The notes under the pieces were generated by a model. The model saw nothing but the letters and a program-made list of their open reading frames with translations, did not search any database and was not told where the DNA came from. Both the position numbers and the translations under genes were made by a program. From a virus: a stretch of 25,755 nt of DNA. Positions 16,059-25,755 of this stretch are shown in pieces; within the stretch, counting starts at the first letter, position 1, and every line of letters starts with the position of its first letter. The DNA is taken from positions 1 to 25,755 of IMG/VR virus record IMGVR_UViG_3300023174_000590; one strand, 5' to 3'.

Positions 16059-16862
16059 ATGCCAACATCAACCACATCCGGGCTAAACATTATTGGCACA
16101 TATCCAATTATTAATAAGCAGTTATCGTCTATTGATGATAATGGAATTCAGACAATTTCTTATGTTTTTACGGTTAAGACAACCAATGCCTTTAATTACA
16201 TTCCTAAAAAAGATGATGAATATTATGGGCCGGGAGACCTTGCAGCTTCATCATCCACGCTTTTTAATCCAAACCTGCCACCATCATCAAGGTCAAAGTA
16301 TTTGGTAACAAACGTAAATATAGATAATCTGAATGGTGGCCTTACGCAGATTGTGGTAAATACTGCTGGAAGCCAAAATCTTGTTTCCCCTCCAAAAGTG
16401 CGAATCCTTCCAAATTATCCTTTGTTATTTGGATTAAGCGGGATTTCCATTACAAATTCATCATCGTTTTTGGGGGGTGGAAATGCTCGTTCGGGATATG
16501 GAATAATGGCAACATTTATAACTGCATCAACACCACAATCAGAGGGCGTTGTTTTTACTAATTATTCAAACAAATTGATGCCAGCAAATCTGCTTGGGAC
16601 AGCGATGCCAACACCAGCAAGAGAATCATTCTACAAGGTAGAAAATAATCCCAATGATCCCAATGATCCCAATGGTGCGGGTGGATCAACTGGTTTTATA
16701 TCTTCATATCAAGGATTTATTTGCACAGAAACAACCTTGCAAAGAATAGGTGGAGTAACTTTATTTCAATTAATATATAAAGAACTTGGATATTATTATA
16801 GCGTTAGTTGTCCTGCGGGTGGGGGGACTTGCCAAACAAATCAAATTTATAATTTTGAATAA
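16059..16862 (+). CDS. Putative distal tail protein
   Basis: A 267-residue, Asn/Ser/Pro/Gly-rich protein directly after the tape measure, the position of distal tail (Dit) or baseplate hub proteins. It has beta-rich segments (YPIINKQLSSIDDNGIQTIS, FNYIPKKDDEYYGPG, then NVNIDNLNGGLTQIVV). At about residues 197-206 it contains a short Asn-Asp-Pro repeat coded by a 9-bp tandem repeat. Two late cysteines (SCPAGGGTC) may form a disulfide. Family is not recognised. Confidence 0.45.
   Translation: MPTSTTSGLNIIGTYPIINKQLSSIDDNGIQTISYVFTVKTTNAFNYIPKKDDEYYGPGDLAASSSTLFNPNLPPSSRSKYLVTNVNIDNLNGGLTQIVVNTAGSQNLVSPPKVRILPNYPLLFGLSGISITNSSSFLGGGNARSGYGIMATFITASTPQSEGVVFTNYSNKLMPANLLGTAMPTPARESFYKVENNPNDPNDPNGAGGSTGFISSYQGFICTETTLQRIGGVTLFQLIYKELGYYYSVSCPAGGGTCQTNQIYNFE
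16650..16674 (+). repeat. 9-bp tandem repeat inside a tail gene
   Basis: CCCAATGAT is present twice exactly (16650-16658, 16659-16667) and a third time in part (16668-16674). It codes Asn-Asp-Pro units. It is a short slippage-type coding repeat, not a regulatory array. Confidence 0.85.
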
Positions 16863-24888: not shown

Positions 24889-25091
24889 GCGTCAAGAGAT
24901 TAAAACTTGTCGATGAGTTTCACGGCTATATCCGGGGAAGGCTCAAGGAATTATTCAACGAGTTCAGCCATGCCCAGCACCAGAACTATAAAGACATCAT
25001 AACTCAGCTAGAGTTCAGCCATCGAGTCACTAAAGAGCTATTGGCACGAGCCAAGAAATATCAGAAGCGGGATAACGAGGCTAAGAAGTGA
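24885..25091 (+). CDS. Small hypothetical helical protein
   Basis: A 68-residue, Lys/Arg-rich, fully helical protein. ATG 24885 overlaps the previous stop. The sequence reads as two helices (EFHGYIRGRLKELFNEFSHA, then DIITQLEFSHRVTKELLARA). It stands directly before the replication initiator, with which it overlaps by four bases, so it may act in replication. No family is recognised. Confidence 0.5.
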   Translation: MSVKRLKLVDEFHGYIRGRLKELFNEFSHAQHQNYKDIITQLEFSHRVTKELLARAKKYQKRDNEAKK

Positions 25092-25755
25092 AGTTGCTTT
25101 GGATCAAATGGTTTCCCTCAGATTGGCTGTCCGATGAGTCTTTGCGTGGATGTTCAATCGAGGCTCGCGGCCTTTGGGTGGATATGCTTTCCCTTATGGC
25201 AAAGTCAGAAAGGGAGGGTTATTTGCTTGCCGGGAAATCTGCCATGAATGCTAATCAACTATCCAGAATTGCCGGGATATCCTTCGACAAGTGCGAGGAA
25301 TTGCTGGCCGAGTTAGGCATGAATGGTGTCTATTCAGTCGATGACGGAACCATATTTAGCCGCCGAATGGTCAAGGATCACGGCTTGCGTAAGTCTAGCA
25401 GGGACAGGATTTTGCGCTGGCGTAACGCAAATGTAACGCAAAAGAAACATGAATGTAACGCAAATGTAACGCCTCAGAGGTTAGAGGTTAGAGGTCAGAG
25501 GTTAGAAGAGAGAGAGAGGCCGCTACCGCGTCCCACTCGCGCGGACTGGATTGCTTACGCAACGGAAATCAAATGGAACCAGCGGGATGCTGAATCGGCT
25601 TTTGACTATTATGAGAGCAACGGATGGAAGGTGGGAGGCCGTGCCCCGGTAAAGGATTGGAAGGCTTGCGCTAGAAATTGTCAGCGGAGGAACCAAACAA
25701 CCAACACGAAAGGAAACCAGCCAATGAAACCAGCACCACGAAGCCAATGCGAATC
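25088..25755 (+). CDS. Replication initiator-like protein (3' end outside window)
   Basis: An open frame of 222 codons from GTG 25088 to the window end. The N-terminus (KLLWIKWFPSDWLSDESLRG then IEARGLWVDMLSLMAKSERE) matches the winged-helix start of phage O/DUF1376-type replication proteins. A Gln/Arg/Glu-rich linker (about residues 110-140) follows, then DWIAYATEIKWNQRDAESAF and YYESNGWKVGGRAPVKDW, a C-terminal segment common in this group. The linker codons contain the repeats at 25422-25510. Initiator genes of this class often hold the origin inside themselves, as lambda O does. Confidence 0.65.
   Translation, partial: MKLLWIKWFPSDWLSDESLRGCSIEARGLWVDMLSLMAKSEREGYLLAGKSAMNANQLSRIAGISFDKCEELLAELGMNGVYSVDDGTIFSRRMVKDHGLRKSSRDRILRWRNANVTQKKHECNANVTPQRLEVRGQRLEERERPLPRPTRADWIAYATEIKWNQRDAESAFDYYESNGWKVGGRAPVKDWKACARNCQRRNQTTNTKGNQPMKPAPRSQCE
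25422..25473 (+). repeat. Iteron-like repeats GTAACGCAA (candidate origin)
   Basis: GTAACGCAA occurs at 25422, 25433 and 25455, and GTAACGCC at 25466. Spacings are 11, 22 and 11 bases, so all lie on one helix face; the missing unit between 25444 and 25454 is degenerate. They are inside the replication initiator gene, as lambda iterons are in gene O. Confidence 0.6.
25476..25510 (+). repeat. 7-bp purine-rich tandem repeats beside the iterons
   Basis: AGAGGTT, AGAGGTT, AGAGGTC and AGAGGTT follow one another at 25476, 25483, 25490 and 25497, then AGAAGAG and a GA run to about 25519. One strand is almost all purine. It could be a helix-destabilising or protein-binding part of an origin, or only slippage in a linker. 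Confidence 0.7.

What the first reader, a model, noticed from the sequence alone, without database searches (positions are those of the whole stretch)
25422..25510. Phased iteron array inside the replication initiator gene
GTAACG repeats at 25422, 25433, 25455 and 25466 keep an 11-bp phase over 50 bases, and a 7-bp purine repeat follows. Both are coding. The layout resembles lambda ori inside gene O and could be the origin, with the initiator N-terminus binding the iterons.
Basis: partly seen in the sequence, partly recalled or inferred. Interest (0 to 1): 0.6.

Follow-up and report, generated by a model that had tools for sequence, protein, structure and literature searches.

The report
Phage origin hidden inside initiator gene
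A bacterial virus appears to carry the DNA switch that starts its genome copying inside the very gene whose protein throws the switch, written across the protein's floppy linker, and the same layout turns up in three separately collected families of phage replication genes.

Summary
The repeats are real. Five 11-bp units (25421-25475), four matching TGTAACG and one degenerate, abut a 7-bp AGAGGTT array (25476-25510). Both lie in the disordered linker of a winged-helix phage initiator and exceed a protein-preserving null. In 24 non-redundant relatives chosen by protein only, synonymous shuffling leaves sharp peaks at lags 11, 22, 7 and 14. Arrays of that strength occur in 16/24 (11 bp) and 19/24 (7 bp) linkers and nowhere in 110.7 kb of flanking DNA. 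The 11-bp unit changes together across copies read in different frames (TGTAACG, TGTAACC, TGTAATG, TGTCACG, TGTCCAG). The degenerate copy is the one where the consensus would write an in-frame TAA; relatives whose consensus lacks that stop keep it. So the constraint is on DNA, not on the linker peptide. Two further N-domain families (FEPNRWL type and DUF1376) show the same 11-bp phase followed by 6- or 7-bp arrays. It differs in helical-pitch iterons and a heptamer array that is not AT-rich. Initiator binding and origin activity are inferred, not shown; GC skew was uninformative.

The parts
25088..25753 (+). Initiator-like ORF (GTG start, runs off the contig end; about 23 further codons in near-identical relatives)
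   Evidence: ORF; PHROG replisome organizer 13246 (E 3e-4) over residues 13-115 and phrog_15768/28809 over the C-terminal part; full-length copies in L002-L005
25115..25423 (+). N-terminal winged-helix domain, residues 10-112
   Evidence: AlphaFold2 pLDDT mostly >90, helices 10-15, 24-38, 55-62, 66-78 and a beta wing 83-90; only generic winged-helix matches in PDB; weak HTH Pfam hits in relative L007
25421..25475 (+). Iteron array: five 11-bp units (25421, 25432, 25443 degenerate, 25454, 25465)
   Evidence: conserved phase in relatives; concerted change; stop avoidance in unit 3
25476..25510 (+). Heptamer array: AGAGGTT, AGAGGTT, AGAGGTC, AGAGGTT, AGAAGAG, directly abutting the iterons
   Evidence: lag 7/14 peaks in relatives; arrays only in linkers; stop avoidance at the C of unit 3
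25430..25522 (+). Protein linker, residues 115-145, predicted disordered, encoded by the iterons and heptamers
   Evidence: pLDDT < 50 for residues 115-145
25535..25708 (+). C-terminal helical domain (PxxxWxxYAxEI...DYYxSNGWKVG...PVKDWKAC), residues 150-207, shared with initiators that have other N-domains
   Evidence: alignment A2, PHROG 15768/28809 on proteins with different N-domains, AlphaFold2

Best explanation
This is an intragenic phage replication origin. The N-terminal winged-helix domain of the initiator binds five helically phased 11-bp iterons lying on one face of the DNA inside its own gene. The nucleoprotein complex opens or loads onto the adjacent 7-bp array, and the C-terminal domain recruits the replicative helicase. 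The linker peptide is mainly a by-product of the DNA: its residues follow the repeat, and copies deviate where the repeat would write a stop codon. Shown: the repeats, their phase, their conservation as DNA, their unique place in the gene, and the domain layout. Inferred: binding by the initiator, opening at the heptamers, helicase recruitment, and origin activity.
For: Repeat above a protein-preserving null in the window. In 24 non-redundant relatives: lag 11 z 12.1, lag 22 z 7.9, lag 7 z 9.5, lag 14 z 5.5, lags 10 and 12 near 0. Arrays in 16/24 (lag 11) and 19/24 (lag 7) linkers, 0 in 110.7 kb flanking. In six 31-39 kb phage contigs the only lag-7 array in each is in the linker. Concerted change across reading frames, 0 of 2000 permutations. 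In AAC/AAT-type arrays the frame-1 unit, where the consensus would give TAA, departs from consensus, mostly as TGAAAC; frame-2 units match 28/28, 14/14 and 4/4; C-type arrays keep the consensus in frame 1. Two further N-domain families show lag 11 z 9.5 and z 9.6. Disordered linker between two folded domains. PHROG annotation as replication proteins. Same position as the annotated lambda iterons and as SPP1 oriL inside gene 38 (PMC6316719). Pam1 homologue lies beside a replicative helicase gene.
Against: No binding or replication data. No AT-rich unwinding tract: the heptamers are 53% A+T, and helix stability there is average for the window. GC skew is positive throughout most of the relatives' contigs with no switch at the gene. 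No recognised helicase or loader gene was seen in the short stretch downstream in close relatives. Distant prophage relatives have weaker 11-bp signal and often 12-bp units.
Confidence: 0.77

Rival explanations
1. The iterons are real initiator-binding sites but serve autoregulation (a roadblock in the initiator's own gene), and the origin is elsewhere.
For: Initiators often repress their own genes (general knowledge); binding inside a gene could block transcription.
Against: No second cluster of the motif upstream or elsewhere in the window, nor in the three relatives' contigs where the scan had power (G001, G005, G007); a separate short-period array is usually attached; lambda and SPP1 precedents are origins.
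Confidence: 0.1
2. The repeats are selected for the peptide: the linker needs repeated NVT/QRLE motifs and the DNA follows.
For: The array is coding and the linker joins the two domains.
Against: Protein-preserving shuffles do not reproduce the 11- and 7-bp periods. The same base change is silent in one frame and replaces residues in another, yet occurs in both. In prophage relatives the motif uses AGA 20/20 and CCA 19/19 where the same genes otherwise use 11% and 21%.
Confidence: 0.03
3. The arrays are neutral tandem repeats from slippage, tolerated because the linker is disordered.
For: Heptamer arrays also occur outside initiators: most AGAGGYT hits sit in short-ORF or apparently non-coding DNA. 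Units are homogenised within a locus, as slippage would do.
Against: Slippage does not hold an 11-bp phase with degenerate spacer bases through deep divergence. Arrays of this strength are absent from the other 110.7 kb. Phase survives where single units are degenerate only to avoid stops. A heptamer control gave 17 stretches, none with an N-type A initiator. It remains possible for the heptamers alone.
Confidence: 0.08

Closest known systems
oriLambda inside gene O of phage lambda and Stx phages
   Same: Iterons in the middle of the initiator gene, after an N-terminal DNA-binding domain, with a second element adjoining them; codon position nearly the same (PMC7466680).
   Different: Lambda has four 18-bp iterons 20-24 bp apart and an AT-rich tract; here there are five 11-bp units in helical phase and a 53% A+T heptamer array. 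The window protein matches no lambda O-like family.
SPP1 oriL inside gene 38
   Same: Direct repeats bound by the initiator gp38 inside its own gene (PMC6316719).
   Different: SPP1 has an AT-rich DUE and a second origin oriR; neither was seen here.
P1 oriR-type iterons plus heptamers
   Same: Iterons beside a set of heptamers (recalled from general knowledge, not tested).
   Different: From general knowledge: P1 iterons are longer and outside the repA coding frame, and its heptamers carry GATC. Here GATC is seen only in relative L006 among the close relatives read.
DUF1376 / primosomal protein family of phages
   Same: Same layout of N-domain, iteron/short-array linker and C-domain; structure search of the window protein returns DUF1376 and Lin1244 proteins.
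   Different: The window's N-domain has no Pfam match.

Membership tests
Lambda-type intragenic origin | Direct repeats inside the initiator coding sequence | tested here: met
Lambda-type intragenic origin | Repeat constrained as DNA, not only as protein | tested here: met
Lambda-type intragenic origin | AT-rich tract adjoining the iterons | tested here: not met
   Heptamers 53% A+T, stability average for the window; type-B relatives do have AT-rich AATAGT arrays
Lambda-type intragenic origin | Initiator binds the iterons | not testable with these tools
   needs EMSA or footprinting
Lambda-type intragenic origin | Replication starts there | tested here: inconclusive
   GC skew has no switch and is confounded by gene orientation in Pam1
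Lambda-type intragenic origin | Initiator homologous to lambda O | tested here: not met
   No O-like family matches the window protein; Vibrio relative L025, sharing the C-domain, does match O-like phrog_345
Phage replisome organizer / primosomal initiators | Profile match to the family | tested here: met
   phrog_13246 E 3e-4 over the N-domain, stronger in relatives L007 and L024
Phage replisome organizer / primosomal initiators | Winged-helix N-domain, disordered linker, C-domain | tested here: met
   AlphaFold2, generic winged-helix PDB matches, BFVD hits to initiators

The most novel reading that the evidence does not exclude
A large share of phage initiators with different N-terminal domains (this type, FEPNRWL type, DUF1376, and others) share one composite origin module written into the linker: helically phased 11-12-bp iterons specific to the N-domain, followed by a short-period 6- or 7-bp array (CAGAAGC, AGAGGTT, CAAGGAC, AACCAAG, AATAGT, ATACCA) that acts by its period or strand bias as a new kind of opening or loading element in place of an AT-rich tract.
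Probability: 0.35. Interest if true: 0.8.

Novelty: new variant of a known kind. Interest (0 to 1): 0.58.

Why it matters
Origins of most uncultured phages are unmapped. If the linker rule holds, origins could be read directly from initiator sequences across Pfam/PHROG families now labelled unknown function or DUF1376, and each iteron set gives the binding site of its initiator. It also gives a clean case of DNA function dictating protein sequence, with stop-codon avoidance showing which constraint yields. The heptamer array poses a testable question: what opens an origin that has no AT-rich tract?

Tried and rejected
GC skew in the window, Pam1 and six relatives' contigs: no usable switch. 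A permuted heptamer meant as a negative control (AAGGACY) was not negative: 8 of 19 hits lie in linkers of another initiator family, two of which were checked as PHROG replication initiation proteins; a second control (GACGACY) was negative. DnaA-trio reading of the AATAGT arrays: dropped because the iterons lie on the wrong side of the repeat (inference). Specificity residues in the N-domain: iteron type follows clade, so columns that separate types cannot be told from descent; L055 is the clearest exception. Downstream genes of close relatives that were tested have no Pfam or PHROG match. An alignment of diverse DUF1376 domains had no stretch conserved enough to search with. Literature searches found no description of this linker arrangement in the open-access library.

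Full report
THE OBSERVATION. GTAACG occurs at 25422, 25433, 25455 and 25466 as reported, in one 11-bp register. Laid out in register the array is CGTAACGCAAA TGTAACGCAAA AGAAACATGAA TGTAACGCAAA TGTAACGCCTC (25421-25475), and a 7-bp array AGAGGTT AGAGGTT AGAGGTC AGAGGTT AGAAGAG (25476-25510) follows without a gap. The full unit is found nowhere else in the window. With the protein held fixed and codons resampled from the window's own usage, the lag-11 identity has P = 2e-4 and the lag-7 identity was not reached in 20,000 resamples.

THE GENE. The ORF 25088-25753 runs off the contig. PHROGs call its N-terminal part a replisome organizer and its C-terminal part phrog_15768/28809. AlphaFold2 gives a confident winged-helix N-domain (10-112), a linker with pLDDT below 50 (115-145) and a helical C-domain (150-207). 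The iterons and heptamers encode almost exactly that disordered linker. PDB matches are generic winged-helix proteins, none significant; predicted viral structures return DUF1376, Lin1244-like and replication initiator proteins.

RELATIVES. IMG/VR gave close full-length relatives, 80 by the N-domain and 80 by the C-domain; 54 more came from bacterial genomes, mostly alphaproteobacterial. From the N-domain set I kept 24 loci whose linkers are under 85% identical. Against shuffles of synonymous codons within each gene, autocorrelation peaks at lag 11 (z 12.1), 22 (7.9), 7 (9.5) and 14 (5.5), with lags 10 and 12 near zero. Strong lag-11 arrays are in 16 of 24 linkers and strong lag-7 arrays in 19 of 24; neither occurs in the other 110.7 kb of the same loci. 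In six contigs of 31-39 kb, the lag-7 array occurs once per contig, always in the initiator linker; lag-11 arrays are at the linker in four of six, with three elsewhere in total.

DNA, NOT PEPTIDE. The iteron core differs between relatives (TGTAACG, TGTAACC, TGTAATG, TGTCACG, TGTCCAG) but changes together within a locus. Eleven is not a multiple of three, so neighbouring copies are read in different frames, and one base change is silent in one copy and alters a residue in the next (AAC to AAT keeps Asn in one frame while ACG to ATG turns Thr into Met in the other). Copies in different frames are 84% identical within a locus and 74% between loci, with 0 of 2000 permutations reaching the observed value. 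The degenerate unit is explained: in its frame TGTAACG or TGTAATG would write ATG-TAA. There, none of 29 frame-1 copies in AACG, AATG and AACC arrays carries the consensus, most reading TGAAAC (a few of the 29 are blocks at the array edge), while frame-2 copies match 28/28, 14/14 and 4/4; where the consensus is TGTCACG or TGTCCAG, which has no stop in that frame, the in-array copies mostly keep it. The heptamers behave alike: the base before AGA is T in 127 of 163 cases in the two harmless frames and never in the frame where it would write TAG, where it is usually C (80 of 88). The absence of stops is of course trivial; the information is that the consensus holds elsewhere. Counts are over related sequences, so formal P values overstate.

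THE HEPTAMER IN DISTANT RELATIVES. In 19 prophage relatives, mostly from high-GC bacteria, the peptide QKPEAR uses AGA 20/20 and CCA 19/19, against 11% and 21% elsewhere in the same genes. A blind scan of all IMG/VR for AGAAGCYAGAAGCYAGAAGCY gave 106 stretches. Of 83 non-redundant ORFs of at least 110 aa, 61 match a profile of this N-domain at E < 1e-5; I judged 16 more initiator-like from Pfam DUF1376 and PHROG tallies and by eye, and 6 not. A control heptamer GACGACY gave 17 stretches and no N-type A initiator. Two cautions: a permuted heptamer CAAGGAC also sits in linkers of another initiator family, and AGAGGYT arrays are also found outside initiators, mostly in short ORFs or apparently non-coding DNA. 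So heptamers may arise by slippage, but their fixed place beside the iterons and codon-level conservation argue for use.

GENERALITY. A second N-domain (FEPNRWL type, same C-domain) has lag 11 z 9.5 and lag 22 z 8.4, with CCAT-type iterons and AT-rich AATAGT/AATAAC hexamers. A third, DUF1376, sampled by protein only, has lag 11 z 9.6, lag 22 z 7.2 and lag 7 z 4.7, with GCAATGCGAAC-type iterons followed by ATACCA hexamers or AACCAAG heptamers. Distant prophage relatives of the first type often show 12-bp units instead, which stay in frame, so the synonymous-shuffle test is weaker there.

MECHANISM. By analogy with lambda O (PMC7466680; iterons at codons 117-145) and SPP1 gp38 (PMC6316719), the N-domain should bind the phased iterons on one DNA face, strain or open the adjacent array, and present the C-domain to the helicase. 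Binding, opening, recruitment and origin activity are inferred. No AT-rich tract adjoins the iterons here, so which DNA opens is the least certain step. GC skew does not help. No recognised helicase or loader was seen just downstream in close relatives, though Pam1's homologue lies next to a replicative helicase gene.

VERDICT. As an intragenic iteron origin it belongs to a known kind; the 11-bp helical phase, the abutting short-period array in place of an AT-rich tract, and the recurrence across N-domain families make it a variant that I did not find described in the papers I could search.

Noticed in passing
L279:1362-2378 (-) and L311: An HNH endonuclease domain appears inserted in frame in the initiator linker, between the N-domain and the QKPEARSQ heptamers; Pfam HNH hit in one member of A4.
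   Followed up: no
L040:3244-3711, L062:3205-3687, L091:3211-3672: The gene directly downstream of the initiator in relatives ends in a motif like RRWAMWRDQYNAGVPASVIARAWGCDHSTI that recalls DnaA domain IV; no Pfam or PHROG match was found for the two tested, L040 and L091.
   Followed up: partly
L195-L219, L096-L103: Many prophage initiators of other bacteria have a TTC/TCA trinucleotide array (peptide TPSSSSSSSS) where the heptamers would be, suggesting that the short array differs by host group.
   Followed up: no
L024:2989-3696 (Pseudanabaena phage Pam1, gene Pam1_56): Annotated as hypothetical; it is a homologue with 12-bp CCTAATAGGTCA-type units followed by CAGAAGCCAGAAGCCAGA, next to a replicative helicase gene.
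   Followed up: partly
window 16643-16687: A 9-bp tandem repeat (peptide NDPNDPND) in a structural-type gene is the strongest short-lag repeat in the window outside the initiator.
   Followed up: no
L055:2501-3241: This relative has the N-domain core of the TGTAACG clade but TGTCACG iterons and a different basic tail at residues ~104-112, a natural chimera that may show where iteron specificity lies.
   Followed up: no
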